64,000 nt of DNA. Source: Linnemannia hyalina (taxonomy: Eukaryota > Mortierellomycota > Mortierellomycetes > Mortierellales > Mortierellaceae). The position numbers and the translations under genes are program-made. Shown one piece after another: positions 7,506-64,000 of the stretch (its first letter is position 1; every line of letters starts with the position of its first letter). The notes under the pieces are model-generated. The model saw only the letters and a list, made by a program, of their open reading frames with translations, was not told the DNA's origin and did no database searches. The stretch covers positions 1,760,221 through 1,824,220 of the forward strand of contig JAHRHY010000014.1 in assembly GCA_019671135.1 (NCBI GenBank). The letters are read 5' to 3'.

Positions 7506-7548
<43 letters not shown>

Positions 7549-37596: not shown

Positions 37597-37812
37597 GTTT
37601 TTGGATATGAACGATATAGATTGTACTTGTGGTATGGTGGGTGTGAATGACTTTTCAGTTTATGTGTGGTAGATTGCAGCTGCTTAGTACACTGATATAA
37701 AGAATTGCAATAAAAGATGGTTGTATAGGTATGGATGGTTGTATAGATATGGATAATGGTTGGTTGGTTACTAGATAAGATAAAGATTAAGCAAGAGGGA
37801 AGTGGAGTCCTT

Positions 37813-37820
37813 TATTTATA
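37813..37820 (-). promoter_or_regulatory. TATA box of P1
   Basis: TATAAATA on the minus strand, ~215 bp before the P1 ATG. The same box occurs at 48926 and 54196 before P2 and P3. Confidence 0.55.
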
Positions 37821-39560: not shown

Positions 39561-39721
39561 AATAATATTTATGTATTGGATTGTCATGACGTTAACCAAC
39601 AATAACAATTTTTTAAAAAGGCTTATACTTAACTGTATACACAACAGCATGTAGGATGGTATCTATCATACAGCAAGCACATAGTTGAGAATACAAATAT
39701 ATTTTTATATTTTATTCGGTA

Positions 39722-40216
39722 GCGGCCCCTTCATGTGCAGAGGATATAAAAAGGCATATAAAAAATATCCAAAGTCCAAGGAACGGAGTGTTGACTTCCA
39801 TAACTGGCATATCTCTTCATAGTGGGCAACAGAACACAGAATAAAATAGCAATAGACAGCACAAGAATTTTTAAAATGTAATCTCTCCCCTGTATTTCAC
39901 GACAAAGATACAGTTGAGAATACAAGTGCTTTAGATGACCACATACAAGAACTACTCAGGCGAATCTTGCAGTGATGGGTACAGTTTAATAGTAGATGAA
40001 CACATTCAAGATATTGGTGAGCGAAAAATAAGAAGACTTTGTTGTTTGGAGAATGTAGTTGTGTTTAGTAGGATAATCGCGCAAGGAATGTTACAGTGGT
40101 TGTTTTAAATGGTTGATATCATACATACACTCTCCTCTAATGGACGCGGTGGATATCGTCAAGATCTGCAGAGATGTAACAAACACCATATGATAATTTG
40201 GACTTGAAAGGCCTCC
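39722..40216 (-). repeat. R repeat, copy 3 (495 bp)
   Basis: Precedes T1 in element orientation and should hold its promoter. GGGGCCGC is followed by TACCGAATAAAATATAAAAA, an A/T-rich TATA-like stretch that also follows copies 4 and 5. Confidence 0.88.
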
Positions 40217-40219
40217 TAA

Positions 40220-40670
40220 GGAGGCCATCCATGTTCGGCTCCACCAACCATAGACTACAGTATAAAAATATCTGTCAACACCTATTAAAACAGTGTGTTC
40301 CTTGAGAGTACAACAAATCTCATCAGCTTTTTCCTTCCACCAGTCTCCATTTTCTACATTCACCACCACTACTTTGTAACATCATCTACTTTAGCTGAGA
40401 AAGCCTTGGACATGATCATCTCATATTGGAAAGGAAATTACTATCTGTAATATCCAGGATCCAATATGAGATGATCATGTCCAAGGCTTTCTCAGCTAAA
40501 GTAGATGATGTTACAAAGTAGTGGTGGTGAATGTAGAAAATGGAGACTGGTGGAAGGAAAAAGCTGATGAGATTTGTTGTACTCTCAAGGAACACACTGT
40601 TTTAATAGGTGTTGACAGATATTTTTATACTGTAGTCTATGGTTGGTGGAGCCGAACATGGATGGCCTCC
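40220..40670. mobile_element. FB1: 451-bp near-perfect hairpin element with TAA target duplication
   Basis: Arms of ~210 bp are complementary, from GGAGGCCATCCATGTTCGGC inward, around an asymmetric centre of ~35 bp. TAA lies on both sides (40217-40219, 40671-40673). A 3-bp duplication of TAA/TTA type is what PIF/Harbinger-like transposases make. It lies between R3 and the tail of the P0 fragment. It could fold as a long dsRNA if transcribed. Confidence 0.85.
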
Positions 40671-40673
40671 TAA

Positions 40674-45800: not shown

Positions 45801-46530
45801 ACAATGACTTGTATTTGGAATCTTGGCGTTTAACCTCAGCGACTCTTCTATACTCTTCATGAACGCGTCCTTTTCCGCAATAAATTCCTGCGTCTTTTCT
45901 CGTTCTGGAATCGTGAGAGGTATCAGCGTGGGCTTTTCGTCTTCAACTGGCGCTGGCATCCGTCCAGACGACTCATCTGCATCGGGTAGTCCAACGATAT
46001 TGAATCCATAGCGGTGAAAGAGATCCATGCCAATGGTAACTGCATGACTCTGTTCAATAACCTCATATGGCGCGCTAAGCACATTCTGTCCACAGACAAT
46101 CTCTACGTTTTCCGTTTCTCCAACGCGTTTAATGACAGACGAGTCAGCTAATTCAATGTATCCTTCCATTGGTTTAACCGGAATAGAATACTTTTTGACT
46201 ACAGCTGCACTAATAAATGAGTGTGTGGCACCAGTATCAATGAGTGCAAGATGTCGCTCTTGATTAAGATAAACAGGAACAAACAGTCGATTATCCGGCT
46301 GATGTTTTCGTTTACTTGAACCATAGTGCTTGTGTACTAACTCAAAGTCCTTCTCTCCAAAGGAGAATAATGGGTAACCATCACATGCGTCTGACACTGG
46401 GTTATCACTAATTGAAAATCTTTCGAAGGCCCTTAGGTACTCGTCGTCTACTACATCCTCGATGTTGTACTCGGCCGGTGCATTATCTCTTCCTTCTTTA
46501 ACAATGCCCATAGCTCCATACTTCACCTTT
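42867..46530 (-). mobile_element. Ty3/Gypsy chromovirus polyprotein, 5' end missing
   Basis: One frame of about 1,220 codons in the order protease (ALIDTGATHSFIS), reverse transcriptase (VCLDPRPLNAHL, FSTVDLKQAYHRLP, NFIDDILLAS), RNase H (YVATDASNVGIG), integrase zinc domain (HALGHIGTNAM with CQECQR), integrase core (MAVDLTGPFP, LQSDNGREFVNE, HPRGNGVAENHVKT) and a C-terminal chromodomain (EYRVKWKGYKEETWEPQENF). RT before integrase plus chromodomain defines a chromovirus, which targets heterochromatin marks. No stops interrupt it, yet gag, the 5' LTR and the primer-binding site are absent. The 5' side ends abruptly at the start of R4. The open frame runs a few codons into R4, which is accidental. 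Confidence 0.93.
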
Positions 46531-47026
46531 GGAGGGCCTTTCAGGTCCAAGTTATCATATGGTGTTTGTTACATCTCTGTAGATCTCGACAATATCCATA
46601 GCGACTATGGGATGAGAATGTATATATGATACCAAGCATATAAGACAACCATTGTAACATTTTTTGTTCAACTATCCTACTAAACACCAACCTATTCTCC
46701 AAACAACAAAGTCTTCTTATTTTTCGCACACCACACTCTTGAATATGTCCATCTACTATTAACCTGTAACCCTCACTGCAAGATTCGCCAGAGTAGTTCT
46801 TGTATGTCATCATCTAAAGCACTTGTACTCTCAACTGTATCTTTGGGGCGAAATACAGGGGAGAGATTACATTTTAAAAATTCTTGTGCTGTCTATTGCT
46901 ATTTTATTCTGTGTTCTGTTGCCCACTATGAAGAGATATGTCAGTTATGGAAGTAAACACTCCGTTCCTTGGGCTTTGGATATTTTTTATATGCCTTTTT
47001 ATATCCTCTGCACATGAAGGGGCCGC
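46531..47026 (+). repeat. R repeat, copy 4 (496 bp)
   Basis: Near-identical to copies 1 and 5. It ends GGGGCCGC and is followed by TACCGAAAAAAATATAAAAA and then T2. Confidence 0.88.
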
Positions 47027-47187
47027 TACCGAAAAAAATATAAAAATATATTTGTATTCTCAACTATGTGCTTGCTATATGATAGATACCATCCTACATG
47101 CTGTTGTGTATGCAGTTAAGTATAAGCCTTTTTAAAAAATTGTTATTGTTGGTTAACGTCATGACAATCCAATACATAAATATTATT

Positions 47188-48477
47188 ATGGATCTAACAA
47201 AACACTTCCAACAACTGCTTGATGACCATTGGACTTTCCTCAACGCTGGATGGCCAACAATTACACCACGTAATAATCATCGTACTGTAAGCAAGGAAAT
47301 TGGGTATATGCCAGAAATAAAAGAAACCCTAAATCGACGCCTTGGTCCTATTCCAGTGTACTTCTTTCTTGTTGACATCTGGCCAAAGGTTAAGTATCCT
47401 GGTCCATACAAAGAAGTGGAGAAAGGTCTTTTAATGCTCTATCATCTTGTCAAAGGACTGTCTATGGAAGCAATGGAACCACACATGCCAAAAAGTAGTT
47501 TTCATGCAATGCACTCTGTGTTTTATAAGAAAGAATATACTTTGCACAACAAGTACATCACCAACTGTATTGCAACAATGTTCTCCACAATTAAAATACG
47601 CCTATTGTCTGCAAAGGAAAAGAATCCTCCATTATTTAAGCATGTTACATTGCATCTTGATGGTCATGATACAAGAGCAACATACAAAGGTGAGAGTAGT
47701 GCTGATATGTACTCTTACAAGCTGAAAAAGTCAGGATTACGCACACAGGTAGCAATGGATTGTAATGGCATGGCTTTATTTGTCTCCAAATCTGCATCTT
47801 GCAAGAACAATGCTGATGGAACAATGCTGCTAACGATGAAGTTGGACAAGAGAGTGCATGAGATGGATTGCATTGCTCTCGATGGAGGGTATCCACAGTT
47901 CTTAAGGAGGCTTATAGATGAGTCTGATATTCTTAGAGTCCAAAATTTCGCTCATCCATACCGTAAACAGAAGAACAAGGAACTTACACAGGAAGAAGCG
48001 TTATACAATACCACCTTTGGTAGTTTCCGCTCGCAGATGGAATCTCTGTTTGCAGACCTTGGTTCCACATTTGAGAAACACAACAATCGTACTCCTGTGT
48101 TGGTGGATAAGAAACAAACATATAATTTGCAGTTGAAGTTATCTTTATTACTCTTAAACATGAAAAAGATGGTTGCTTTGTTGAAGATTTCTGCAGAACC
48201 AATTCATACAGCTTGGCTTCGCGAAGGCTTCGAGTATCCGACGACAGAGAACGACGTTGAGCAACCAATGGGATATGTTGATGTTGGTGCGCTAGTGGAG
48301 GATGGAAATACAATGGCACAACTCCAGAACAAATTTCTTGGTATTAATCTTCATGGTGATGTTGATGTTAATGTTGATGAGGACACACCAATGGATCAAG
48401 CAGTAATAATGCAACCCGGTCTTTCCATTGAGCTTAGAGGTACGAAGCGACAAATGGATGTTAATGGTAATCTGTAG
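47188..48477 (+). CDS. T2: DDE transposase-like protein
   Basis: 429 residues, almost identical to T1 and T3 with a handful of substitutions (for example MKLDKR for MTLDKR and DILRVQ for DTLKVQ). All three candidate acidic residues (about 158, 232, 285) are kept, so it may be functional. TTTTTAAAAAATTG lies just upstream, at 47131. Preceded by R4 and followed by P2 after 667 bp. Confidence 0.72.
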   Translation: MDLTKHFQQLLDDHWTFLNAGWPTITPRNNHRTVSKEIGYMPEIKETLNRRLGPIPVYFFLVDIWPKVKYPGPYKEVEKGLLMLYHLVKGLSMEAMEPHMPKSSFHAMHSVFYKKEYTLHNKYITNCIATMFSTIKIRLLSAKEKNPPLFKHVTLHLDGHDTRATYKGESSADMYSYKLKKSGLRTQVAMDCNGMALFVSKSASCKNNADGTMLLTMKLDKRVHEMDCIALDGGYPQFLRRLIDESDILRVQNFAHPYRKQKNKELTQEEALYNTTFGSFRSQMESLFADLGSTFEKHNNRTPVLVDKKQTYNLQLKLSLLLLNMKKMVALLKISAEPIHTAWLREGFEYPTTENDVEQPMGYVDVGALVEDGNTMAQLQNKFLGINLHGDVDVNVDEDTPMDQAVIMQPGLSIELRGTKRQMDVNGNL

Positions 48478-49144
48478 ACTTATTGCAGGTTCTTAAAAGA
48501 ATAGTCATACATAGCCTATTTAGTCAGCGTTGAGATACGGTATTAACTGCCTAGACGCTAATATGCACCGGTATCTATTATTAAAAGTCATGGTATTATT
48601 GTAGTAGATCGGATGCTATTCTATGCTATTCTACAACATTCCTTTTATTTAACAAAGAGGATAAACACATGTACAAACCTACGTCATAAAAGAATACATA
48701 AACACATGTACAAACCTACGTCATAAAAGAATACTACATTCTTAACCATTTTTAAACCCCGTCTTTAACGCCAAGCAGTCTTAATAAGCAAGATCTACGT
48801 CATACGAGGAACACTACATTATTAACCACTTAGATGCCTTTTTAAAACTCTTTTGTTACTAAGCGCCAAGCAGTGCTAATAAGCAAGCGCTATTAATGTC
48901 CATTGTGGCAGTGTTCCTGAATTAGTATAAATAAAGGAGTCCACTTCCCTCTTGCTTAATCTTTATCTAGTAACCAACCAACAATTATCCATATCTATAC
49001 AACCATCCATACCTATACAACCATCTTTTATTGCAATTCTTTATATTAGTGTACTAAGCAGCTGCAATCTACCACACATAAACTGAAAACTCATTCACAC
49101 CCACCATACCACAAGTACAATCCATATTATTCATATCCAAAAAC
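48478..49144 (+). promoter_or_regulatory. T2-P2 spacer with TACGTCAT repeats and TATA box
   Basis: Contains a tandem 37-bp repeat (48661-48734) with ACACATGTACAAACCTACGTC, giving TACGTCAT at 48680 and 48717 and a third at 48795. A TATAAATA box lies at 48926. The sites match the CRE/ATF half-palindrome. The spacer is conserved in all three copies and is probably the P promoter. Confidence 0.55.
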
Positions 49145-51250
49145 ATGAAGTACGTTCAGCTTACAATCGAGCTCATCACCAAGGCCTTTGAGACATTCTC
49201 CTCTAAGAAGGGAGTGGAGTTTAACAAGAAAGATGCAAATAAGATCTTTAAGGCGCTTGATGAGGATGAGGAAGTAGAGAGATACTACTTTTGTGGAGAA
49301 AAGTGCACCAAGTCCAAGCGCAAATGCATGAAGGAAGTTGATGATGAAGGCATGCATTGTTATGTCCACGATCCTGCGCGCAAGTGTCAAGGCACAACTA
49401 TTAAGGGTGCTAATTGTGGTAGTGTAGCCAAACTTGGTCAAACATACTGTGGACGTCATCAAGATCAAGATAGAGGTTATATAAAACGTAGTAACAACAA
49501 CGCACCTGTCGACAAGCGTACCAAGTCTTCCAAGGCTTTAAAGAAGACACATACTTCTAAGTTTGTGTCTTCCGATGACGATATGACTTCCGAGGATGAA
49601 GAACCAAAGAAGCGAAAGAGAAACAAGCAGGAGTCATCGGATGAAGAGCCGTCCGATGATGATGATGAAGAAGATATAATTGCCGTCTCCTTTCCGTTGA
49701 GTCCAAAGGTAGTTGACATAACGTCCAAGAAAAATGTACCACTCGCTAATACATGTATATGGACGCGTTATGCAACTAATCCAGCTTTCCTGTATGCAAA
49801 AAGCTTTACTGTAAATGGCAAGTACATTATTAGGCTAAAGGAAAAGAATCTCTACATTGCATTGTGTCCACCTAAGCTCATGGGCAAGAATCTCCCTGCG
49901 CCAGAAATATCTGAGAAAGAGGCACGCATATTGGCCAAGATGGGTCTTCAAGAGGCAACTTCAGCAGATGTAGAAAAAATAGAAGAGTCTTCTGCTGATG
50001 AGAATTCTGACGATGATACAGATGATGGTGATACGTCTGATAATGCTGACTCTGACGATGATTCCTCTAAAGATAAAGACTCTGATGATGGCAAGTCCAA
50101 TAACAGACCTGATGTAGAATCTGGAGATGATACCTCTAAGGATAACCCTGATGAAAAACTATCTCATAAAAAGCCATCTAAGGATGATGAGAAGAAGACT
50201 TCTCGAAAGAAAAGGCATTCAGAGATGCCCAAAAATGCAGAGCCATCTTCTAATGTAGATGTTTCTAAGGATGAAAAAGATGAGCACACATTTGCACTGG
50301 CCACAACGGTGCGTAACATTAGATCAGAGAAAGACATACCACTTGCAAAGGATGGAGGATGGATGGTTCATCCTAATAACGACATGCTTGAGTATGCAAC
50401 TAACTTTACGATGAAGGCTAAGTACATTGTCAAGCTATGTGGAAAGAATACATACGTTGGCCTGTTTACGCTTGATCATCTGCGTGGCGGTGGTGATGTT
50501 CCAGAGATGGATATCTTGGAACGCTCCATGCTTAGCAAGATGAAACTTCAAGAAATGTCTGATGAAGAGAGAAAGATGCTTTTCAACGAGGAGGTCGAAG
50601 TAGAAGAGGAACTACCAGTGGAAGGACCGACAGATATATCCAAGATGAAATGGAAAAGGTTTCACAAGCAGCAATTGGAGTATTCCAAGAATGTACTTGT
50701 AAATGGAAAGCACATTCTCAAGATCCGCAAGCAAAACATTGTAGTTGGCTTGGTGACTGATGACCACATTGGTGCAGAGAATGTCGACTATGATAATCTT
50801 AACCAAAAGGAAAAAGAAAAGATCTTTGCTATGGGCTTTAAGCCACAATGGTCTAAGGATAGGTCGACAGAGAAAGGTGAACCGGTAGAAAAAATAGATG
50901 ATGAGGTGCAAGAGTCGAATATTAAGGAAACTTTAGATGAACTTGTAGAAAAAGTAGATGATGAGGTGCAAGAGTCGGATGTTAAGAAAACTCTAGAAGA
51001 TGGTGGACCTATGGAAAGCGAAAATGTGAATGCCTCAAGTGTTTACACTACAAAAGACCATCATGATTTTCTGAAGGCAATGGGAGAAGTATATAGCAAA
51101 ATAACAGCTATCGAAGAAGAACTCCGCGAGGAATACGTTTCGGCAGATGGTAATGCAGAAGAAAAAGAACTAATTTTTCACCTAGGTTTGTTGGAGAAAG
51201 ATTATTCCAACTACGAAACATGGCACCATAGTGCAAAGTGTATTAGATAG
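49145..51250 (+). CDS. P2: Cys/His-cluster repeat-module protein, C-terminus lost by deletion
   Basis: 701 residues. The N-terminal Cys/His cluster and module 1 are as in P1. There is a different, longer acidic linker (DDDTDDGDTSDNADSDDDSS), then modules 2 and 3, a Glu/Lys run with EKIDDEVQES and EKVDDEVQES repeats, and a helix IEEELREEYVSADG. Compared with P0, 80 bp are missing after GAAACATGGCAC (51229), which shifts frame and ends the protein at HHSAKCIR. The original C-terminal frame (EKSTMEEKKPLEV) is still readable at 51265-51325. P2 and P1 differ in their last quarter: P1 has a fourth module and the D-D-K-D-A-E run, P2/P0 a Glu-rich helix. These are two P subtypes. Confidence 0.72.
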   Translation: MKYVQLTIELITKAFETFSSKKGVEFNKKDANKIFKALDEDEEVERYYFCGEKCTKSKRKCMKEVDDEGMHCYVHDPARKCQGTTIKGANCGSVAKLGQTYCGRHQDQDRGYIKRSNNNAPVDKRTKSSKALKKTHTSKFVSSDDDMTSEDEEPKKRKRNKQESSDEEPSDDDDEEDIIAVSFPLSPKVVDITSKKNVPLANTCIWTRYATNPAFLYAKSFTVNGKYIIRLKEKNLYIALCPPKLMGKNLPAPEISEKEARILAKMGLQEATSADVEKIEESSADENSDDDTDDGDTSDNADSDDDSSKDKDSDDGKSNNRPDVESGDDTSKDNPDEKLSHKKPSKDDEKKTSRKKRHSEMPKNAEPSSNVDVSKDEKDEHTFALATTVRNIRSEKDIPLAKDGGWMVHPNNDMLEYATNFTMKAKYIVKLCGKNTYVGLFTLDHLRGGGDVPEMDILERSMLSKMKLQEMSDEERKMLFNEEVEVEEELPVEGPTDISKMKWKRFHKQQLEYSKNVLVNGKHILKIRKQNIVVGLVTDDHIGAENVDYDNLNQKEKEKIFAMGFKPQWSKDRSTEKGEPVEKIDDEVQESNIKETLDELVEKVDDEVQESDVKKTLEDGGPMESENVNASSVYTTKDHHDFLKAMGEVYSKITAIEEELREEYVSADGNAEEKELIFHLGLLEKDYSNYETWHHSAKCIR

Positions 51251-51799
51251 TATTCAAGCCAAAGAGAAAAGTACGATGGAAGAAAAGAAGCCTCTTGAAG
51301 TAACATTTGAGACCGCAGAAGAGTAGATCAAGAATTTTAAAAACTGTAGATATACCACTTGCACAAATAAAGCTTTTATATATGGAATACACATGTAATA
51401 TTATCCTCGTCCCTTCCAATGAGATTCACCAGATATATTACCCATCTTTTTAAAAACTTCCACCATCCTTTGCACAATTTACAATATTTCTTTCTTGATC
51501 ACAGTGGTGTTTATCCACAATCTACTTATATTTAACATTACGAAAATTACAATAACTATATCTAATATGTTCTACAATGCATGCACTCTTTATGACATTT
51601 ATTTTTTCACCATTGGCATGTTTACCAACGATCTGTATAGGAGGCCGCATATCAACAAATATTATAACAATCGTAACTTCCTACAAAGTATGTTACATCA
51701 AACATTATAAAAACCACGATAACTTCATCTGAGACGTTCCACAATGCATGCACCCTCACCATTATTGCATTACCCATATTTTTTTAAAACATTCACCTA
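51251..51799 (+). other. 3' tail of copy B
   Basis: A/T-rich, with three TTTTTAAAA-type motifs (51333, 51449, 51783) and two copies of ACAATGCATGCA (51574, 51743). Non-coding. It ends CACCTA immediately before R5, the same six bases that end copy A's tail. Confidence 0.6.
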
Positions 51800-52294
51800 G
51801 GAGGCCTTTCAGGTCCAAGTTATCATATGGTGTTTGTTACATCTCTGTAGATCTCGACAATATCCATAGCGACTATGGGATGAGAATGTATATATGATAC
51901 CAAGCATATAAGACAACCATTGTAACATTTTTTGTTCAACTATCCTACTAAACACCAACCTATTCTCCAAACAACAAAGTCTTCTTATTTTTCGCACACC
52001 ACACTCTTGAATATGTCCATTTACTATTAACCTGTAACCCTCACTGCAAGATTCGCCAGAGTAGTTCTTGTATGTCATCATCTAAAGCACTTGTACTCTC
52101 AACTGTATCTTTGGGGCGAAATACAGGGGAGAGATTACATTTTAAAAAAACATGTGCTATCTATTGCTATTTTATTCTGTGTTCTGTTGCCCACTATGAA
52201 GAGATATGTCAGTTATGGAAGTAAACACTCCGTTCCTTGGGCTTTGGATATTTTTTATATGCCTTTTTATATCCTCTGCACATGAAGGGGCCGC
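51800..52294 (+). repeat. R repeat, copy 5 (495 bp)
   Basis: Serves as right boundary of copy B and left boundary of copy C. Nearly identical to copy 4; a short change (AAAAAAACATGTGCTATC) disrupts the hydrophobic frame slightly. Confidence 0.88.
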
Positions 52295-52455
52295 TACCGA
52301 AAAAAATATAAAAATATATTTGTATTCTCAACTATGTGCTTGCTATATGATAGATACCATCCTACATGCTGTTGTGTATGCAGTTAAGTATAAGCCTTTT
52401 TAAAAAATTGTTATTGTTGGTTAACGTCATGACAATCCAATACATAAATATTATT

Positions 52456-53745
52456 ATGGATCTAACAAAACACTTCAAACAACTGCTTGATGACCATTGG
52501 ACTTTCCTCAACGCTGGATGGCCAACAATTACACCACGTAATAATCATCGTACTGTAAGCAAGGAAATTGGGTATATGCCAGAAATAAAAGAAACCCTAA
52601 ATCGACGCCTTGGTCCTATTCCAGTGTACTTCTTTCTTGTTGACATCTGGCCAAAGGTTAAGTATCCTGGTCCATACAAAGAAGTGGAGAAAGGTCTTTT
52701 AATGCTCTACCATCTTGTCAAAGGACTGTCTATGGAAGCAATGGAACCACACATGCCAAAAAGTAGTTTTCATGCAATGCACTCTGTGTTTTATAAGAAA
52801 GAATATACTTTGCACAACAAGTACATCACCAACTGTATTGCAACAATGTTCTCCACAATTAAAATACGCCTTTTGTCTGCAAAGGAAAAGAATCCTCCAT
52901 TATTTAAGCATGTTACATTGCATCTTGATGGTCATGATACAAGAGCAACATACAAAGGTGAGAGTAGTGCTGATATGTACTCTTACAAGCTGAAAAAGTC
53001 AGGATTACGCACACAGGTAGCAATGGATTGTAATGGCATGGCTTTATTTGTCTCCAAATCTGCATCTTGCAAGAACAATGCTGATGGAACAATGCTGCTA
53101 ACGATGACGTTGGACAAGAGAGTGCATGAGATGGATTGCATTGCTCTCGATGGAGGGTATCCACAGTTCTTAAGGAGGCTTATAGATGAGTCTGATACTC
53201 TTAAAGTCCAAAATTTCGCTCATCCATACCGTAAACAGAAGAACAAGGAACTTACACAGGAAGAAGCGTTATACAATACCACCTTTGGTAGTTTCCGCTC
53301 GCAGATGGAATCTCTGTTTGCAGACCTTGGTTCCACATTTGAGAAACACAACAACCGTACTCCTGTGTTGGTGGATAAGAAACAAACATATAATTTGCAG
53401 TTGAAGTTATCTTTGTTACTCTTAAACATGAAAAAGATGGTTGCTTTGTTGAAGATTTCTGCAGAACCAATTCATACAGCTTGGCTTCGCGAAGGATTCG
53501 AGTATCCGACGACAGAGAACGACGTTGAGCAACCAATGGGATATGTTGATGTTGGTGCGCTAGTGGAGGATGGAAATACAATGGCACAACTCCAGAACAA
53601 ATTTCTTGGTATTAATCTTCATGGTGATGTTGATGTTAATGTTGATGAGGACACACCAATGGATCAAGCAGTAATAATGCAACCCGGTCTTTCCATTGAG
53701 CTTAGAGGTACGAAGCGACAAATGGATGTTAATGGTAATCTGTAG
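52456..53745 (+). CDS. T3: DDE transposase-like protein
   Basis: 429 residues, differing from T1 by only a few residues (HFKQLL for HFQQLL). All motifs are intact. It is the first gene of copy C, whose second gene is broken, so T3 could act in trans on ends of other copies. Confidence 0.72.
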   Translation: MDLTKHFKQLLDDHWTFLNAGWPTITPRNNHRTVSKEIGYMPEIKETLNRRLGPIPVYFFLVDIWPKVKYPGPYKEVEKGLLMLYHLVKGLSMEAMEPHMPKSSFHAMHSVFYKKEYTLHNKYITNCIATMFSTIKIRLLSAKEKNPPLFKHVTLHLDGHDTRATYKGESSADMYSYKLKKSGLRTQVAMDCNGMALFVSKSASCKNNADGTMLLTMTLDKRVHEMDCIALDGGYPQFLRRLIDESDTLKVQNFAHPYRKQKNKELTQEEALYNTTFGSFRSQMESLFADLGSTFEKHNNRTPVLVDKKQTYNLQLKLSLLLLNMKKMVALLKISAEPIHTAWLREGFEYPTTENDVEQPMGYVDVGALVEDGNTMAQLQNKFLGINLHGDVDVNVDEDTPMDQAVIMQPGLSIELRGTKRQMDVNGNL

Positions 53746-54419
53746 ACTTATTGCAGGTTCTTAAAAGAATAGTCATACATAGCCTATTTAGTCAGCGTTG
53801 AGATACGGTATTAACTGCCTAGACGCTAATATGCACCGGTATCTATTATTAAAAGTCATGGTATTATTGTAGTAGATCGGATGCTATTCTATGCTATTCT
53901 ACAACATTCCTTTTTATTTAACAAAGAGGATAAACACATGTACAAACCTACGTCATAAAAGAATACATAAACACATGTACAAACCTACGTCATAAAAGAA
54001 TACTACATTCTTAACCATTTTTAAACCCCGTCTTTAACGCCAAGCAGTCTTAATAAGCAAGATCTACGTCATACGAGGAACACTACGTTATTAACCACTT
54101 AGATGCCTTTTTAAAACTCTTTTGTTACTAAGCGCCAAGCAGTGTTAATAAGCAAGCGCTATTAATATCCAATATGGCAGTGTCCCATGAATTAGTATAA
54201 ATAAAGGACTCCACTTCCCTCTTGCTTAATCTTTATCTTATCTAGTAACCAACCAACCATTATCCATATCTATACAACCATCCATACCTATACAACCATC
54301 TTTTATTGCAATTCTTTATATCAGTGTACTAAGCAGCTGCAATCTACCACACATAAACTGAAAAGTCATTCACACCCACCATACCACAAGTACAATCTAT
54401 ATCGTTCATATCCAAAAAC
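53746..54419 (+). promoter_or_regulatory. T3-P3 spacer
   Basis: Conserved copy of the T-P spacer, including the tandem 37-bp repeat (about 53933-54004), TACGTCAT sites and TATAAATA at 54196. Confidence 0.55.
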
Positions 54420-55941
54420 ATGCAGTACGTTCAGCTTACAATCGAGCTCATCACCAAGGCCTTCGAGACATTTTCTTCTAAGAAGGGAGTGGAGTTACCA
54501 AGAAAGATGCAAATAAGATTTTTAAGGCGCTTGATGGGGATAAGGAAGTGGAGAGATACTACTTTTGTGGAGCAAAGTGCGTCAAGTCCAAGCGTAAATG
54601 CATGAAGGAAGTTGACGATGAAGGCATGCATTGTTATGTCCACGATCCTGCGCGCAAGTGTCAAGGCACAACCATTAAGGGCGCTAATTGTGGTAGTGTA
54701 GCCAAAATTGGTCAAACATACTGTGGGCGTCATCAAGATCAAGATAGAGGTCATATAAAACGTGGTAACAAGAATGCACCTGTCGTTACGCGTCCCAAGT
54801 CTTCCAAGGCTTTAAAGAAGACACATACTTCTAAGTTTGTATCATCTGATGACGATATGACTTCCGAGGATGAAGAGCCGTCCGACGATGATGATGAAGA
54901 AGATAAAATTGCCGTCTCCTTTCCGTTGAGTCCAAAGGTAGTTGACATAACGTCCAAGAAAAATGTACCACTCGCTAATACAGGCATATGGATGCGTTAT
55001 GCAACTAATCCAGCTTTTCTGTATGCAAAGAACTTTACTGTAAATGGCAAGTACATTATTAAGCTGAAGGAAAAGGATCTCTACGTTGTATTGTGTCCAC
55101 CTGAGCTCATGGGCAAAAATCTTCCTGTACCGGAAATATCTGAAAAAGAGGCACGTATATTACAAAAGATGGGACTCCAAGAGGCAACTCCTGCAGATGT
55201 AGAAAAAATAGAAGAGTCTTCTGCTGATGATAAGAAGAAGACTCTTCGAAAGAAAAGGCCTTCAAAGATGCCCAAAAATGCAGAGCCATCTTCTAATGTA
55301 GACGTTTCTAAGGATGGAAAAGATGAACATACATTTGCACTGGCCACAACGGTGCATAACATTAGATCAGAGAAAGACATAGCACGTGCGAAGGACAGAG
55401 GATGGATGATTCATCCTAATAACGACATGCTTGAGTATGCAACTAAGTTTACGATGAATGGCAAGTACATTGTCAGGCTATCTGGAAAGAATACATACGT
55501 TGGCCTGTTTACGCTTGATGCTCTGCGCGGTGTCGGTGATGTTCCAGAGTTGGATATCTTGGAACGCTCCATGCTTAGCAAGATGAAACTTCAACCATTG
55601 TCTGATGAAGAAGAAAGACGCTTTTCAACGAGGAGATCGAAGTAGAAGAAGAAGTACCAGTAGAAGGACCAACAGATAAATCCAAGGTGATATGGAAAAA
55701 ACTTAACAAGTACTTGGAATATTCCGAGAATGTACTTGTAAATGGAATGCACATTCTCAAGATGCGCAAAAAAGACACTGTAATCGGCTTGATGACTGAT
55801 GACCATATTGCTGCAGAGAATGTAGAATGTCATTCTCTTAGCCAGAAGGAAAAAGAGAAGTTGTTTGCTATGGGATTTAAACCGCATGAGCATAAGCAAA
55901 GCTTGCCACAGAAAGATGAGAGCACATGTGAGGATGATAAA
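54420..55941 (+). pseudogene. P3: P1-type gene with two 1-bp deletions, cut by an insertion
   Basis: It follows P1 closely. A T is missing near 54495 (GAGTTACC against GAGTTTACC), changing frame after KKGVE. A second base is missing near 55611 (GAAGAAGAAAGACG against GAAGAGAGAAAGACG) in module 2. The original frame is then readable through module 3 (KVIWKKLNKYLEYSE) to ESTCEDD, where FB2 begins. The internal frame 54548-55645 could still make a shortened protein, but I consider the gene dead. Confidence 0.85.
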
Positions 55942-56392
55942 GGAGGCCATCCATGTTCGGCTCCACCAACCATAGACTACAGTATAAAAATATCTGTCAA
56001 CACCTATTAAAACAGTGTGTTCCTTGAGAGTACAACAAATCTCATCAGCTTTTTCCTTCCACCAGTCTCCATTTTCTACATTCACCACCACTACTTTGTA
56101 ACATCATCTACTTTAGCTGAGAAAGCCTTGGACATGATCATCTCATATTGGATCCTAGATATTACAGATAGTAATTTCCTTTCCAATATGAGATGATCAT
56201 GTCCAAGGCTTTCTCAGCTAAAGTAGATGATGTTACAAAGTAGTGGTGGTGAATGTAGAAAATGGAGACTGGTGGAAGGAAAAAGCTGATGAGATTTGTT
56301 GTACTCTCAAGGAACACACTGTTTTAATAGGTGTTGACAGATATTTTTATACTGTAGTCTATGGTTGGTGGAGCCGAACATGGATGGCCTCC
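55942..56392. repeat. FB2 hairpin (451 bp)
   Basis: Same length and ends as FB1, with the asymmetric centre inverted relative to FB1 (GGATCCTAGATATTACAG on the plus strand). It fuses a short meaningless tail (KGGHPCSAPPT) to P3. Confidence 0.85.
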
Positions 56393-58379
56393 TAGTAGAG
56401 CATTTGTTTTCGTGTTTATATAATTAGCGATGGTTACTAATATCTCCTTTTCATGATATATCCTATGTGTATATCCAATATAGCACTCGTGATACTGGTG
56501 ATGATGTAGTGGTAGTTTTAAAAAAAAGTTGGATCCCGATTTTTTAAAAAAGTAGCATAGTGGCTTTAACAAACATTGGTTGTTGGAAAGAAAGGGTAGC
56601 TGATACGTTTTTAATGGCGTTATTGCTACACTTTCTCAACAATATTCGACATTCGACATTTGACATTCGGCATTCGATTCGACAGCTGACAAACTGTAGT
56701 TATTACCACAGTTATGATATTTGATATGAACGCATTTTGGATTACCTCGTGATTATTGTGATGTTTAATTTTAATACATTCTTGATAAACTCGTAAGTAT
56801 TACAATGTTTAATGTTGACATACTTTAGGTAAGCCCACGATTTGCACGACGTTTAATATTATTACACTTTGGTTGACTTACAATTGTTATAGCATTTATT
56901 GTTATACAGATTGTAGGTAATTACGACAATGGTAAAAACAGAGATATCGCAATTAGACCATGTATTGTGGGTAGTTGTAGATATAACAATTATATCGTTT
57001 AAAATAGACGTTCTTAAAACACATCACATATTTTATAATGCAAATGGCTATTATATTACAACGTTTCTATTGCATTTTGTGTGATAACAAGATAGAAAAA
57101 ATGTGTTGTTAATAGAGTAATTATATCGTTAAAAATAGACGTTTCTTAAAACACATCACATATTTCGTGATGCAAATGGGTATGAACATTGTAACATTTC
57201 TATCGCATTTTGTGTGATAATAAGGTAGAGAAAATGTGTTGTTAACAGAGTAATCATGTCGTTTAAAATAGACGTTTCTTAAAACGTATCACATATTTCG
57301 TGATGCAAATGGGTATGAACATTGTACCTTTCTATCGCATTTTGTGATAATAAGGTAGAGAAAATGTGTTGTTTAAAGAGCAATTATGTCGTTAAAAATA
57401 GACGTTTCTTAAAACACATCACATATTTCGTGATGCAAATGGGTATGAACATTGTAACATTTCTATCGCATTTTGTATAATAACAAGACAGAAAAATGTA
57501 TTGTTAACAGAGTAATTATGTCGTTTAAAATAGACGTTTCTTAAAACGTATCACATATTTCGTGATGCAAATGGGTATGAACATCGTGGCGTTTCTCTCG
57601 CATTTTGTGTGATAATAAGGTAGAGAAAATGTGTTGTTAACAGAGTAATTATGTCGTTTAAAATAGACGTTTCTTAAAACGTATCACATATTTCGTGATG
57701 CAATGGGTATGAACATTGTGACATTTCTATCGCATTTTGTGTGATAACAAGACAGAAAAAATGTGTTGTTAACAGAGTAATTATGTCGTTTAAAATAGAC
57801 GTTTCTTAAAACGTATCACATATTTCGTGATGCAAATGGGTATGAACATTGTGACATTTCTATCGCATTTTGTGTGATAATAAGAGAGAAAATGTGTTGT
57901 TAAAGTTATGTCGTTTAAAATAGACGTTTCTTAAAACACATCACATATTTCGTGATGCAAATGGGTATGAACATTGTACATTTCTATCGCATTTTGTGTG
58001 ATAACAAGACAGAAAAAGAAGTTGTTAACAGAATAATTATGTCGTTTAAAATAGACGTTTCTTAAAACGTATCCCATATTTCGTGATGCAAATGGGTATG
58101 AACATTGTGACATTTCTATCGCATTTTCTGTGATAACAAGACAGAAAAAGAAGTTGTATAAATAAAAGTTATGTAGACTTAGGAAATGTCTATAAAATAT
58201 CGTTTGTATACTTTGGTGGTTGGGAGAAAATTGGTGGTTACAAAAAAGTTGTCGCAAAACCGCCATGATGAAATACTTTGACATCTGGTTGAGGGGCTTG
58301 CTCCCTATCGTGTTTATCGTTAATAGTTTTAAAAAATCCAAAAGTGTGTTATATAAAGGAATTTTTGCTAATAGTTTAC
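56393..58379 (+). repeat. Left terminal inverted repeat with nine ~131-bp iterons
   Basis: Complementary to 61792-63768. Its outer ~600 bp is unique A/T-rich sequence. From about 56992 to 58160 nine units repeat, each with (A)AATAGACGTTTCTTAAAAC, CATATTTCGTGATGCAAATG, GGTATGAACATTG and TTTCTATCGCATTTTGTGTG. Unit landmarks (TAGACGT) fall near 57004, 57134, 57268, 57399, 57531, 57663, 57796, 57920 and 58050. The outermost unit is the most diverged. The inner edge carries TTATATAAAGG (58349), a candidate TATA box. Confidence 0.85.
58349..58357 (+). promoter_or_regulatory. TATA-like box at inner end of left TIR
   Basis: TTATATAAA in AAAGTGTGTTATATAAAGGA. The mirror copy lies 42 bp before T4. A degenerate second copy of the same ~45-bp segment (AAAAGTGTATTGTAGTATAG) lies at about 58470-58515, just before X1. 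Confidence 0.5.
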
Positions 58380-58525
58380 GTTTAAATTCTCTTGAAATAG
58401 ATGATATATGCATTATATTTCTATCCAATCTATCATGGAATATGAGATAACTTCTTTTATAGTGCAACAAATCTAAAAGTGTATTGTAGTATAGGCATTC
58501 TTCCTAATGGTTTACTAGTTATGCA

Positions 58526-58771
58526 ATGCCAACACTTAAAGAAATTAAGCAAATAATAGCCATTTATATACATGAGCATCATATGCATCCTACAATGGCA
58601 ATGTACTTGAGAGCTGTTTTGTTACGTGGTAAGTCTCAGCAAGAACTTAATGGTATGTCAAAGGAAGAACTGTGGGGATTAGTAGACTTTTTTGCACCAG
58701 ATTTACAAAAACATATGCATACAATTGGTGCATTATCATGGTCAGCATACCAAAAATTTGCTTCAGAGTAA
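58526..58771 (+). CDS. X1: 81-residue protein of unknown function
   Basis: Helical, charged and His/Met-rich: MPTLKEIKQIIAIYIHEHHM, then LRAVLLRGKSQQELNGMSKE and LWGLVDFFAPDLQKH. No Cys pairs, signal peptide or membrane segment. It starts 10 bp after a degenerate copy of the promoter-like TIR segment and ends just before a TTTTTAAAAA motif, then X2. It is small enough to be a DNA-binding or regulatory protein, but I do not recognise it. Confidence 0.5.
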   Translation: MPTLKEIKQIIAIYIHEHHMHPTMAMYLRAVLLRGKSQQELNGMSKEELWGLVDFFAPDLQKHMHTIGALSWSAYQKFASE

Positions 58772-58825
58772 AGTGGTTTTTAAAAAGTTTGTAGTACATA
58801 TCTCTGCAAACAGTAAGCTTTCAAC

Positions 58826-60476
58826 ATGTCCGCTATACCTAAATCCATTAACAAGGCGCTGAACTCATATGCCCATCTTATCTCTGATGTGGGCAAAGAG
58901 ATTGCATTGCCTGGCAAACCGAAGACTGGCTGGAAAAAGTACTCAGAGATATTCTGCGATAGTTTAATACTCTGGGGATTGCACAACCGGGCTGCACTTG
59001 TTGACGAGCAGCGCAAAAACACCACTTCCAATATTCGCGAAGCTTTTAAAGACCTCGATGTTAGCCACTCCATGGTTAAAGTTGTTAACGAGGGTTATAT
59101 CAAAGACAATAGTTTTTTTAGCTCTAAACTACTAGAAAAACATAGAAAAAAGTTTAGAAGTACGGCCTTATACCATGCAGGATATTTCAGCATTAAGGTA
59201 ACGCTCAATGAACTGGAGGCCATCTCTTTAATTTCCGAGTTACCACCAATATTTCATGAGCTTGAGGTTGACTATGTTATCTCCATGATATAGACATTGC
59301 TACGGATTGTAGATATGTTACAAGCCGTCCAATTCTTCAGCAATACCTTCAAGAGAGATTTGGAGAAGATTTGGATATTGCCGACGATCTCCATAAGGTT
59401 GGTAACCACTGTCTCTCTTGGTTTGGAGTCACCGAAAAAGACCAAAAGGTCCGTTGTAAGGTTTATAACAAACTTGTACAGATGTTGGAGAGTGCTGAAG
59501 TAAAAATGTCGTTGGGTTCAAGAATGGAAATTTTGTTATGGATGTGGATAAGGACCTACATAAGAGACTTCGAAAGGCGAAGAAAACAGGTCTAACAAGA
59601 CTTGAACTTACCTTTTATGGACAGGAGATATATACATTCTCCTATTATAAAGGAGTCTTGGATGCCATAAAGGAAGAGATCCAAGAATGTCCCACCTTCT
59701 GCGTAAAACACAAGGCATATTGGAAGTATATAGTTGGTAATATATCATCCATGGTAGGTATTCATGTAACAATGGGTGAAAAATCGGCATTCGCATATTG
59801 CCATTGGTGGAACTCTGTTACAGGTAAGAAGTATGGTTCATATCGTAACAATGTCGAGAAAGAGGAAGCAATGACGTTGTTAGCCAACTATAGCTTCAAC
59901 GATAGACCAATATACTTTTTGGAGGTTGAGATGGATGAGAATAGCATCAAGGATATTACAGTTACCAAGTACAAACGGCCTGACGAATGTACAGCAATAA
60001 CACTTGTTGCAGGAGCACATAAAGGCATGTACCCATACATTTACGATGATGATGTTTTACAATTCGAGGATATGGGTATAGTGGAGGTGGATAATGTAAA
60101 GATCCAATGGCCTGAGAGAAGAATCCGCAAAGGTGCACCACCAATTGTTGATATTCATCTAGAAAACATGAATGGTGAGAATTTTATACAAGTCCATGAT
60201 AGAGCTATCCACAAAGCAACATACAAAGCTGGATATAATGTACTTGAAATAAATACCAGCTATACAGTCATAGCAATTGCAATGGATATGTATCACAACA
60301 AAGAATATATTTTTGCAACATTGTCCAATGGTATTAAAGTACGATGTGGACTTAGTTTAGAAACAAAGATCGTTGCATGGCTGGAAGAATATCCCGATGG
60401 CCAAGTTCCGTATATGAATTTCACCACATTGCAATGCAGAACTGTTCGCGGGTTCAAGGATATTTATATACGTTAA
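58826..60476 (+). CDS. X2/X3: one long gene read in three frames, replication-initiator-like motif layout
   Basis: Frame one, 58826-59293, 155 residues: MSAIPKSINKALNSYAHLIS, GWKKYSEIFCDSLILWG, YHAGYFSIKVTLNELEA. Near 59270-59290 sense continues one base back: LHDIDIATDCRYVTSRPILQ, ADDLHKVGNHCLSWFG, VRCKVYNKLVQMLES. At GTAAAAATG (59501-59509) it again moves one base back into the open frame ending at 60476: VVGFKNGNFVMDVDKDL, GLTRLELTFYG, SAFAYCHWWNSVTGKKYGSY, LLANYSFNDRPIYFLEVEMD. Together about 550 residues. The sequence HDIDIATD ... KVYNKLVQ ... TRLELTFYG recalls the order in rolling-circle replication initiators (Asp-rich block, Y-K motif, R-x-E block). This is a weak, motif-level resemblance. 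Two shifts in the same direction mean decay or recoding. Confidence 0.5.
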
Positions 60477-60513
60477 GAATGCTAATAGATAGTTTTTAAA
60501 AATTACAATGGGC

Positions 60514-61773
60514 TTACTTTGTACGCTTATATGATGGAATCTCCACTCCTGCAAAAATTTCACGTCGCTTATTAGTCGGCTCTTCCCGTTGTTTATCCTC
60601 GACATCCATAGTAGTCATCTCCAAGAACTGCTCTTGTAACTTTGTTATATCTCGTGCATCATGCAACATCTCATCCACTGGAATATAATCCAAGATTTGT
60701 TCCATTGCACCATTGGCATATGGAAAGTCGAAGCCATCTCTAATCCAGGCACTATGAATGGGTTCCAGATTTAACTGCAGTAGTGCCACCATCTTCTTGA
60801 TGTTCATAAGCAAGAGACACAATCGCAATTGCAAATTATATGTTTCTATCTTGGTTACCAACACTGGTTTCCTATTGTTGTGCTTCTCAAAGGTTGCTCC
60901 AAGATCTCCAAATTCGGCTTCTATCTGAGAGCGGAAACTGCCGAAAATCTTATTGTAGTTAGTTTCATCTTGTGCAAGATCTTTCCCACGGCTTTTGCGA
61001 ATTGGATAACAAAAGTTTTTCTTGCTCATGCTTGTTTCTTCTACTATTTTCTTAATGTATTGTGTGTACCCTCCATCCAATGCAATACAATCTAGCTCGT
61101 GGATGTGCTTATGTATCTTCATACCAACCAACATAGTACCATCGTTGTTATCCTTGCAAGGTAGCGATTTAGAGACTAGTATTGCCATGCCATTGCAATC
61201 GACACACACTTGCGTTCTTACACCAGATTTCTTCAGCTTGTAAGAGTACATGTCTGAGCTAGACTTTTCTTCACATGAAAGACGTGTATCATGACCATCC
61301 AAATGCAATGTTACATGTGGGAATAGTGGTGGATTCCTGAGTTTAGCAGAAATCAAGCGTATAGGAAATGTGGAGAACATATTCGCAAGTGCATGGTTAA
61401 TATGCTTCGAATGCACATTATAGTTAGTCTTGTAGAACTCTGTATGAATGGAGTGGAAACTACTTTTTGGTATGTGGGTTGACATTCCATCCATTGCCAA
61501 GCCTGCAACTAAGTGGTACAATATCAACAATCCTTTGTCGACTTCTCTGTATGGACCTGGATACTGCTTGAGAGACCAAATAACTACAAGAAAGTAGAAT
61601 ACAGGAATTGCACCTAATCTTCTTATAAGTAAGTCTTTAACAGTTTTCATGTGTGCTACTAGCTTCAACGCAGTCCTATGATTATTGGATGGTTCTTGCG
61701 TAGGCCATTCTGCATCCAAAAAAGTCCATTCATCCTCTAACAACCGTTGAAATAGGCGCTTTAAGTTTGCCAT
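60514..61773 (-). CDS. T4: diverged DDE transposase-like protein of the large element
   Basis: 419 residues from the ATG at 61773 (an upstream ATG at 61827 lies in the TIR). Roughly half the residues match T1-T3 by eye, including identical HLDGHDTR, MYSYKLKKSG, CIALDGGY and GSFRSQ followed by Glu, so the three acidic positions are conserved. Its 3' end lies 38 bp from the X3 stop, tail to tail, with GTTTTTAAAAATT between. It shares the transposase family with R-T-P elements but sits in a different gene set, without a P gene. Presumably it mobilises the FB/TIR element and perhaps solitary FB hairpins such as FB1. The C-terminus is Lys/Arg-rich (IPSYKRTK). Confidence 0.72.
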   Translation of the reverse strand: MANLKRLFQRLLEDEWTFLDAEWPTQEPSNNHRTALKLVAHMKTVKDLLIRRLGAIPVFYFLVVIWSLKQYPGPYREVDKGLLILYHLVAGLAMDGMSTHIPKSSFHSIHTEFYKTNYNVHSKHINHALANMFSTFPIRLISAKLRNPPLFPHVTLHLDGHDTRLSCEEKSSSDMYSYKLKKSGVRTQVCVDCNGMAILVSKSLPCKDNNDGTMLVGMKIHKHIHELDCIALDGGYTQYIKKIVEETSMSKKNFCYPIRKSRGKDLAQDETNYNKIFGSFRSQIEAEFGDLGATFEKHNNRKPVLVTKIETYNLQLRLCLLLMNIKKMVALLQLNLEPIHSAWIRDGFDFPYANGAMEQILDYIPVDEMLHDARDITKLQEQFLEMTTMDVEDKQREEPTNKRREIFAGVEIPSYKRTK

Positions 61774-61791
61774 GACTGTAATTACAACCTG

Positions 61792-63768
61792 GTAAACTAT
61801 TAGCAAAAATTCCTTTATATAACACACTTTTGGATTTTTTAAAACTATTAACGATAAACACGATAGGGGAACAAGCCCCTCAACCAGATGTCAAAGTATT
61901 TCATCATGGCGGTTTTGCGACAACTTTTTTGTAACCACCAATTTTCTCCCACCACCAAAGTATACAAACGATATTTTATAGACATTTCCTAAGTCTACAT
62001 AACTTTTATTTATACAACTTCTTTTTCTGTCTTGTTATCATACAAAATGCGATAGAAATGTCACAATGTTCATACCCATTTGCATCACGAAATATGGGAT
62101 ACGTTTTAAGAAACGTCTATTTTAAACGACATAGTTATCTTTAAACAACACTTTTCTCCTTCTTTTATCACACAAAATGCATAGAAATGTCACAATGTTC
62201 ATACCCATTTGCATCACGAAATATGTGATGTGTTTTAAGAAACGTCTATTTTAAACGACATAATCTCTGTTAACAACTTCTTTTTTCTACTTTTATCACA
62301 CAAAATGCGATAGAAATGTCACAATGTTCATACCCATTTGCATCACGAAATATGTGATACGTTTTAAGAAACGTCCATTTTAAACGACATAATTACTCTG
62401 TTAACAACACATTTTTCTACTTATTATCACACAAAATGCGATAGAAATGTCACAATGTTCATACCCATTTGCATCACGAAATATGTGATAAGTTTTAAGA
62501 AACGTCTATTTTAAACGACATAATTACTCTGTTAACAACACATTTTCTCTACTTATTATCACACAAAATGCGATAGAAATGTCACATGTTCATACCCATT
62601 TGCATCACGAAATATGTGATACGTTTTAAGAAACGTCCATTTTAAACGACATAATTACTCTGTTAACAAACATTTTTCTGTCTTGTTATTATACAAAATG
62701 CGATAGAAAGTACAATGTTCATACCCATTTGCATCACGAAATATGTGATGTGTTTTAAGAAACGTCTATTTTTAACGACATAATTGCTCTTTAACAACAC
62801 ACATTTTTCTACCTTTATCACACAAAATGCGATAGAAAGTCACAATGTTCATACCCATTTGCATCACGAAATATGTGATACGTTTTAAGAAACGTCTATT
62901 TTAAACGACATAATTACTCTGTTAACAACACATTTTTCTCTCTTATTATACACAAAATGCGATAGAAATGTTACAATGTTCATACCCATTTGCATCACGA
63001 AATATGTGATGTGTTTTAAGAAACGTCTATTTTTAACGACATAATTACTCTATTAACAACACATTTTTTCTATCTTGTTATCACACAAAATGCAATAGAA
63101 ACGTTGTAATATAATAGCCATTTGCATTATAAAATATGTGATGTGTTTTAAGAACGTCTATTTTAAACGATATAATTGTTATATCTACAACTACCCACAA
63201 TGCATGGTCTAATTGCGATATCTCTGTTTTTACCATTGTCGTAATTACCTACAATCTGTATAACAATAAATGCTATAACAATTGTAAGTTAACCAAAGTG
63301 TAATAATATTAAACGTCGTGCAAATCGTGGGCTTACCTAAAGTATGTCAACATTAAACATTGTAATACTTACGAGTTTATCAAGAATGTATTAAAATTAA
63401 ACATCACGATAATCACGAGGTATCCAAAATGCGTTCATATCAAATATCATAACTATGGTAATAACTACAGTTTGTCAGCTGTCGAATCGAATGCCGAATG
63501 TCAAATGTCGAATGTCGAATATTGTTGAGAAAGTGTAGCAATAACGCCATTAAAAACGTATCAGCTACCCTTTCTTTCCAACAACCAATGTTTGTTAAAG
63601 CCACTATGCTACTTTTAAAAAATCGGATCCAACTTTTTTTTAAAACTACCACTACATCATCACCAGTATCACGAGTGCTATATTGGATATACACATAGGA
63701 TATATCATGAAAAGGAGATATTAGTAACCATCGCTAATTATATAAACACGAAAACAAATGCTCTACTA
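61792..63768 (-). repeat. Right terminal inverted repeat with nine ~131-bp iterons
   Basis: Inverted copy of the left TIR. Landmarks ACGTCTA/ACGTCCA fall near 62114, 62243, 62372, 62502, 62632, 62763, 62894, 63024 and 63154. The two arms differ by scattered small indels and substitutions. These include unit-specific ones (for example ACGTCCA in two right-arm units), so the arms are not freshly copied. Confidence 0.85.
61814..61822 (-). promoter_or_regulatory. TATA-like box of T4 in the right TIR
   Basis: TTATATAAA on the minus strand, ~42 bp before the T4 ATG. It is the mirror image of the box at 58349, so both gene blocks would be driven from the same TIR-borne promoter. Confidence 0.5.
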
Positions 63769-64000
63769 GGAGGCCATCCATGTTCGGCTCCACCAACCAT
63801 AGACTACAGTATAAAAATATCTGTCAACACCTATTAAAACAGTGTGTTCCTTGAGAGTACAACAACTCTCATCAGCTTTTTCCTTCCACCAGTCTCCATT
63901 TTCTACATTCACCACCACTACTTTGTAACATCATCTACTTTAGCTGAGAAAGCCTTGGACATGATCATCTCATATTGGATCCTGGATATTACAGATAGTA
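63769..64000. repeat. FB3 hairpin, left part only (cut by window end)
   Basis: Matches FB2 base for base apart from rare changes (ACAACTCTCATC against ACAAATCTCATC, GGATCCTGG against GGATCCTAG), up to the centre of the hairpin where the window ends. Confidence 0.85.

What the first reader, a model, noticed from the sequence alone, without database searches (positions are those of the whole stretch)
55942..64000. Large inverted-repeat element: FB hairpin - 2-kb iteron TIR - convergent genes - TIR - FB hairpin
Seen: mirror-image ends of ~1.98 kb plus a 451-bp palindrome outside each; inside, plus-strand X genes converge on a minus-strand DDE-type transposase. A TATA-like box is present in each TIR. 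FB2 has non-matching flanks, so the hairpins seem to belong to the unit. Combining long iteron TIRs, palindromic caps, a DDE protein and a replication-initiator-like gene is not an architecture I can name. This is the best candidate for an undescribed system in the window.
Basis: partly seen in the sequence, partly recalled or inferred. Interest (0 to 1): 0.9.

Follow-up and report, generated by a model that had tools for sequence, protein, structure and literature searches.

The report
Hairpin-capped fungal transposon with Rep-like enzyme
A family of jumping genes in a soil fungus ends in giant mirror-image DNA hairpins and pairs a normal transposase with a second protein that looks like a bacterial plasmid's DNA-copying enzyme, a combination that suggests a new way for such elements to copy themselves.

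Summary
The unit is a real multicopy transposon of a fungus, by its protein relatives a Mortierellomycete. All 71 TIR outer ends found genome-wide carry the 451-bp palindrome (FB), so the caps belong to the unit. Equal 3-bp flanks occur in 11 of 14 complete copies (7.7-10.7 kb); empty sites were found for 6 of 10. About a third of FBs stand alone; 8 of 15 examined have their own 3-bp duplication. The window copy is cut by the contig end inside its right FB, and its "X genes" are one gene, probably split by consensus errors. T4 is a PHIS-superfamily (DDE_Tnp_4) transposase. X (550-586 aa) co-diverges with T in relatives. Its predicted fold is TBP-like; Rep_trans rolling-circle initiators are among the structural matches, and the published Rep_trans catalytic set (three metal ligands, Tyr, Lys, Gln) is nearly invariant in X. 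No sequence profile links them. Rep_trans enzymes were thought to be prokaryotic. FB loops occur in both orientations at both ends, and in five of six equal-length copies all TIR substitutions are mirrored in both TIRs, as hairpin-mediated copying (or efficient gene conversion) would produce. Replicative movement is inferred, not shown.

The parts
55942..56392 (.). left cap FB: 451-bp palindrome, 211-bp perfect stem, ~29-nt loop; terminus GGAGGCC..GGCCTCC is the outer end of the element
55939..55941 (+). AAA, left member of the 3-bp target duplication; the right member lies beyond the contig end. In the C5 copy (L013) with the same left flank both AAA are seen; an empty site with one AAA lies in the window at 36055-36090 (- strand)
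56393..58379 (+). left TIR with iterons, reaching the promoter region of X
56988..58149 (+). left iteron array, about 9 x 132 bp; ATCAC-N5-9-GTGAT dyads (7 in the left TIR, 7 in the right; 0.01 expected in both by shuffling)
58826..60476 (+). gene X (550 aa, or 586 aa with an upstream start, in intact copies): TBP-fold, Rep_trans-like endonuclease candidate. Frame broken twice in the window copy (near 59279 and 59527), probably by consensus error
60514..61773 (-). gene T4: DDE_Tnp_4 transposase, 419 aa from ATG; triad D159, D233, E285; uninterrupted here and in 32 other rows (two of them the identical contig ends of C19 and C23)
61792..63768 (-). right TIR with iterons, reaching to 19 nt upstream of the T4 start codon
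62022..63177 (-). right iteron array, about 9 x 131 bp
63769..64000 (.). right cap FB, first 232 of 451 bp; contig C6 ends here
40220..40670 (.). solo FB in the same window with its own TAA/TAA duplication

Best explanation
A two-gene DNA transposon of the PHIS superfamily. SHOWN: it moves as FB-TIR-X-T-TIR-FB using the outer FB ends, duplicates 3 bp, has many near-identical copies, and X and T are an old co-diverging pair. STRONGLY SUGGESTED: X is a eukaryotic relative of the TBP-fold Rep_trans endonucleases, which nick DNA with a tyrosine at stem-loop origins. INFERRED mechanism: X (or T) binds the iteron dyads; X nicks near or in the extruded FB hairpin and starts copying; the hairpin end serves as template or primer, so the loop is regenerated in either orientation and the TIRs are equalised; T4 then joins the outer FB ends to the target with a 3-bp stagger. 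Solo FBs arise by recombination between the two caps (which, being palindromes, are direct as well as inverted repeats) or by movement of FB alone.
Confidence: 0.55

Rival explanations
1. Ordinary cut-and-paste PHIS transposon. X is only a DNA-binding partner with a TBP-like saddle (the place that Myb/SANT proteins have in PIF/Harbinger). Loop flips and mirrored TIR changes come from host homologous recombination and gene conversion between inverted repeats.
For: TBPs are the top fold matches; sequence profiles do not connect X to Rep_trans; most described PHIS groups have a second ORF (PMC4482050, passages); 211-bp arms and 2-kb TIRs are good recombination substrates.
Against: Conservation of the whole Rep_trans catalytic set including the nucleophilic Tyr is not needed for DNA binding alone; flips occur between copies with 0-16 interior differences over about 6.9 kb (28-36 for pairs with L018).
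Confidence: 0.38
2. FB is at origin an independent MITE (its 7-bp ends GGAGGCC equal left ends of the T-paralogue element, family C, in the window), which inserted at a TAG in one TIR, was copied to the other TIR by conversion, and now carries the X-T unit as a composite transposon, like IS-flanked bacterial transposons.
For: Solo FBs with their own 3-bp duplication (8 of 15), 2 of 8 tested with empty sites; the sequence inside FB starts TAG; family C ends at 28359, 40216 (- strand) and 51800 start GGAGGCC.
Against: No TIR end without FB was found (71 of 71), so the step cannot be seen; solo FBs could equally be recombination products; another family C left end near 46530 reads GGAGGGCC.
Confidence: 0.3
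3. Part of the pattern is an assembly artefact (right FB of the window, loop orientation, tandem copies sharing a cap).
For: Three contigs end at the same base inside FB with identical 8059-bp copies; long palindromes trouble assemblers (general knowledge).
Against: Complete copies with different flanks, equal 3-bp flanks and empty sites on many contigs.
Confidence: 0.08
4. A hairpin-ended linear replicon or hairpin chromosome end rather than a transposon.
For: Contigs C6, C19 and C23 stop near the FB centre.
Against: 3 of 20 contig starts looked at (C1, C6, C11) carry an ordinary telomere-like repeat, TTTTTTAGGG; copies are interstitial with target duplications.
Confidence: 0.02

Closest known systems
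PHIS superfamily DNA transposons (PIF/Harbinger, ISL2EU, Spy, Pangu, Nuwa), PMC4482050 (passages read)
   Same: DDE_Tnp_4-type transposase, two main ORFs, 3-bp AT-rich target duplication, end starting GG
   Different: Target duplications do not follow TWA, ANT, CWG or 2-bp AT; TIR 2.2-2.5 kb including caps against 5-1042 bp (about 93% under 60 bp) reported for PIF/Harbinger; partner gene X is not recognised as Myb/SANT or YqaJ; palindromic caps
Foldback-type elements with long tandem-repeat TIRs: Galileo (PMC4168063, passages), Tetris (PMC4079207, passages)
   Same: Kilobase TIRs that can hold ~140-bp (Galileo) or ~220-bp (Tetris) tandem units in variable number
   Different: Those have 7-10-bp target duplications and are placed in other superfamilies (P, Mutator); the passages read describe no separate perfect palindrome as the terminus of each TIR and no Rep-like gene
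Rep_trans rolling-circle initiators (pT181 RepC/RepD, RepSTK1, Tn916 and ICEBs1 relaxases) and archaeal Rep-Arvir (PMC4797284, PMC13107129, passages)
   Same: TBP-like fold, Asp-Asp-Glu metal set, Tyr-x-Lys, following Gln or Glu, RxE; those enzymes act at stem-loop origins
   Different: X is eukaryotic, 550-586 aa with a long C-terminal part, sits beside a DDE transposase, and shows no significant sequence similarity in my tests; nicking untested
Parvovirus/AAV-type hairpin ends (recalled, not searched)
   Same: Palindromic ends whose inner part occurs in two orientations
   Different: Those use HUH-type Rep and ssDNA genomes; here 211-bp stems in an integrated element

Membership tests
PHIS superfamily | DDE transposase related to DDE_Tnp_4 with a D, D, E triad | tested here: met
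   PF13359 30.9 bits, cut-off 24.8; D159, D233, E285 invariant in three T paralogues
PHIS superfamily | short (mostly 3-bp) AT-rich target duplication | tested here: met
   11 of 14 complete copies and 8 of 15 solo FBs; middle base A/T in 19 of 19; empty sites for 6 of 10 complete copies
PIF/Harbinger group | TWA target duplication | tested here: not met
   7 of 19 are TWA
PIF/Harbinger group | second ORF with Myb/SANT domain | tested here: inconclusive
   no Myb/SANT hit in X or in 24 homologues; N-terminal 36 residues disordered and C-terminal half of X barely tested by fold
Pangu group | ANT target duplication | tested here: not met
   none of the 19 duplications listed is ANT
ISL2EU group | 2-bp AT target duplication and YqaJ partner | tested here: not met
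   3-bp duplications with empty sites; no YqaJ hit in X or 24 homologues
Rep_trans (PF02486) | match to the family profile | tested here: not met
   no match in own genome at E<=10; none; hhalign with four Rep proteins at most 2.7%
Rep_trans (as a fold/catalytic class) | TBP-like catalytic fold | tested here: inconclusive
Rep_trans (as a fold/catalytic class) | three acidic metal ligands, Tyr nucleophile, Lys at Tyr+2, Gln/Glu at Tyr+5, RxE, in this order | tested here: met
   columns D 61/61, D 62/63, E 63/63, Y 63/63, K 63/63, Q 62/63 (1 Glu), R 63/63; correspondence by hand alignment, not by superposed coordinates
Rep_trans (as a fold/catalytic class) | nicking and covalent attachment to DNA | not testable with these tools
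   needs protein
HUH endonucleases | conserved His-hydrophobic-His | tested here: not met
   the His columns conserved in 90% or more of 65 X sequences (154, 327, 491) are far apart
Foldback-type elements | kilobase TIRs with tandem repeats | tested here: met
   L012 and L013 differ by whole units

The most novel reading that the evidence does not exclude
A eukaryotic transposon that moves by rolling-hairpin copying: a Rep_trans-type tyrosine endonuclease (X), a class thought to be prokaryotic, nicks palindromic hairpin caps and drives replication of the element, regenerating caps in flip or flop orientation and equalising both TIRs, while a PHIS DDE transposase (T) integrates the product. This would be a two-enzyme class of DNA transposon (replicon plus DDE integration) spread through Mortierellomycota and relatives.
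Probability: 0.33. Interest if true: 0.96.

Novelty: new variant of a known kind. Interest (0 to 1): 0.85.

Why it matters
An element that carries both a DDE transposase and a rolling-circle-type endonuclease would be a replicative DNA transposon with a testable mechanism, and would bring Rep_trans enzymes, described as restricted to bacteria and in 2026 extended to archaea (PMC13107129), into eukaryotes. The roughly 100 near-identical 211-bp-stem palindromes in one genome also offer a natural system for palindrome stability, loop inversion and solo-cap formation. A 2015 survey calls the function of the additional ORFs of PHIS transposons unknown (PMC4482050, passage); this co-diverging pair makes that question directly testable.

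Tried and rejected
Hairpin telomere: rejected, the contig starts of C1, C6 and C11 (3 of 20 looked at) carry a TTTTTTAGGG-type repeat; five TTAGGG in a row are absent. Caps as a chance neighbour: rejected, 71 of 71. Window right cap as evidence of symmetry: not usable, contig end. X as an HUH protein: no motif. X by sequence: Pfam, PHROGs, NCBIfam, PDB without a credible match. X in viral contigs: none confirmed. An ordered-motif test of X against Rep invariants (no D46 block) was not significant (197 of 3000 shuffles reach the X score; 4 of 120 T proteins too); I kept the Rep reading only because of the later fold result and the published catalytic set. A TATTAC in the FB loop, first noted as a possible origin motif, is weak (about 4% of shuffled loops) and recalled from another Rep class; dropped. 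Copies L014 and L015 share one cap and L017 has unequal flanks (CTA/TCA), read as recombination products. Left out of the solo count: the second FB of L025 (TTA/TTA, but in a duplicated 500-bp flank, not explained), two truncated FBs (L060, L065) and one at the start of contig C4 (L032). Of the 15 counted, 7 have unequal flanks. Foldseek searches could not be run, so the fold evidence is VIA-align only, which re-aligns Foldseek's candidates. Literature searches that listed no description of this element; most subscription journals are not held. Notebook entries 2 and 3 contain miscounts; the report gives recounted figures (6 of 10 empty sites, 27 of 28 gaps, loop combinations 5/3/2/4).
Full report
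Setting. The window is the last 64 kb of contig C6 of a 51.5-Mb, 50-contig genome. Those homologues of X that bear an organism name are from Mortierellaceae, apart from one Rhizopus and one record called an archaeon that I take for contamination; many have no name. The host is therefore inferred to be a Mortierellomycete fungus. Three of 20 contig starts looked at carry a TTTTTTAGGG-type repeat.

Anatomy. FB2 is a 451-bp palindrome with a 211-bp perfect stem. Inside it follow a TIR with about nine 131-132-bp iterons, gene X, gene T4 on the other strand, and the mirrored TIR. The TIR runs to 19 nt before the T4 start codon, so X and T4 have nearly the same upstream sequence. The iterons carry ATCAC-N5-9-GTGAT dyads, 14 in the two TIRs against 0.01 expected by shuffling, one elsewhere in the window: candidate binding sites for X or T (inference). 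Copies L012 and L013 differ by whole iteron units.

The window copy itself. It ends with the contig, 232 bp into the right FB. It is identical to the ends of contigs C19 and C23, and against the C5 copy 27 of 28 short gaps are losses in the window copy, with 66 substitutions. I therefore treat it as a consensus at a contig end; its split X is probably technical. In one search (127 of 155 candidates scored), 29 rows have a 597-aa open frame over the same region; (96 of 306 candidates scored), 33 rows cover T4 from 1 to 437 at 99-100% without a stop.

The unit and its ends. With up to 3 mismatches, 71 TIR outer ends are found in the genome and 71 of 71 are joined to FB. There are 206 FB arm ends, about 103 FBs; subtracting the ends in use leaves about 34 alone (inference). 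Fourteen complete copies were dissected: 7664-10,716 bp, six of exactly 7797 bp; the flanking 3 bp agree in 11 of 14 (TTT, AAA, ATG, ATA, TTA, TTA, TAT, TAA, CAT, TAG, ATG). The three others are two copies sharing one cap (L014, L015) and L017. Empty sites with a single copy of the 3 bp were found among the DNA held for 6 of 10 complete copies tested and 2 of 8 solo FBs tested, including one in this window for the target of FB2. Of 15 complete FBs not next to a TIR, 8 have equal 3-bp flanks and 7 do not (exclusions under Tried and rejected). One solo FB (L066) lies inside a T4 gene copy and one (L059) inside a family C unit. The middle base of the duplication is A or T in 19 of 19; only 7 of 19 are TWA.

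Flip and flop, and mirrored TIRs. Reading the loop from each outer end, the 14 copies fall into ++ 5, +- 3, -+ 2, -- 4 (the cap shared by L014 and L015 counts for both; for L024 the right cap has a 1-bp gap and was oriented). Among the six 7797-bp copies, L016 and L017 have no difference in the interior but opposite left loops. Among five of the six, every polymorphic TIR site is changed in both TIRs of a copy (579/7219, 1587/6211, 1809/5989, 2112/5686); the sixth, L018, has a one-sided tract. Over the 596 bp between cap and iterons, left and right are identical within 10 of 14 copies, while nine different sequences occur over the 28 ends. Caps and TIRs thus seem to be renewed faster than they mutate. 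Hairpin-mediated copying predicts this; recombination between inverted repeats also can.

T4. PF13359 above cut-off, triad D159, D233, E285 conserved in three paralogues, and PF13359 precomputed on nearly all of the 120 listed (of 278) homologues. With the 3-bp duplication this places it in the PHIS superfamily, outside the described groups by its duplication and partner (PMC4482050, passages read).

X. A protein family of about 550-600 aa when complete (89 found from the best 7998 candidates) with no known domain. It accompanies T: eight pairs share contig length and source against a control mean of 0.74 and maximum of 3, Haplosporangium bisporale has consecutive tags for T and X, a second family in this genome (family B; one complete copy with 317-bp TIR, TTT duplication, no palindromic cap) has the same convergent pair, and the two proteins co-diverge (Mantel r 0.93, 10 pairs).

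Mechanism. Shown: FB-ended units insert with 3-bp duplications; caps occur in both loop states and TIRs of a copy tend to be equal. Inferred: binding of the dyads, nicking by X, hairpin-templated copying, integration by T. Solo caps by recombination or independent movement. The caps' 7-bp ends equal left ends of the T-paralogue element of the window, so FB may have begun as a MITE; both origins remain open.

Noticed in passing
window about 46530-55942 and an inverted copy around 36070-41980: Another element family (family C: T paralogue of 459 aa, 55% identical to T4, followed by a 701-aa gene) in at least two direct and one inverted copies; some ends start GGAGGCCTTTCA, sharing FB's first 7 bp. 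FB1 sits at the end of one unit and FB2 inside another.
   Followed up: partly
L071:757-5573, L069: Family B: X and T paralogues, convergent, with a 130-aa Cys-rich ORF; in L071 a 317-bp TIR starting GGGAATCG and a TTT duplication, nested in another T gene.
   Followed up: partly
L025:341-1291 and 6680-7630: About 500 bp of left flank plus FB occur twice around a copy whose right TIR is truncated.
   Followed up: no
L014/L015 (C13:787598-788048) and L052 (C27:64640-65090): One cap shared by two elements, as in tandem LTR elements.
   Followed up: no
L065 (C11:1252403-1254438): Short derivative of about 1.8 kb with one complete and one truncated cap.
   Followed up: no
window 58526-58771: 81-aa ORF upstream of X, present in all 15 fetched loci looked at (in one it reads on to 89 aa).
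   Followed up: partly
contig starts C1, C6, C11: Telomere-like repeat of this fungus is the 10-mer TTTTTTAGGG (AAAAAACCCT).
   Followed up: no
contigs C19 and C20, first 220 bases printed: The first bases of the two contigs are identical, a sign of shared subtelomeric or duplicated contig ends.
   Followed up: no
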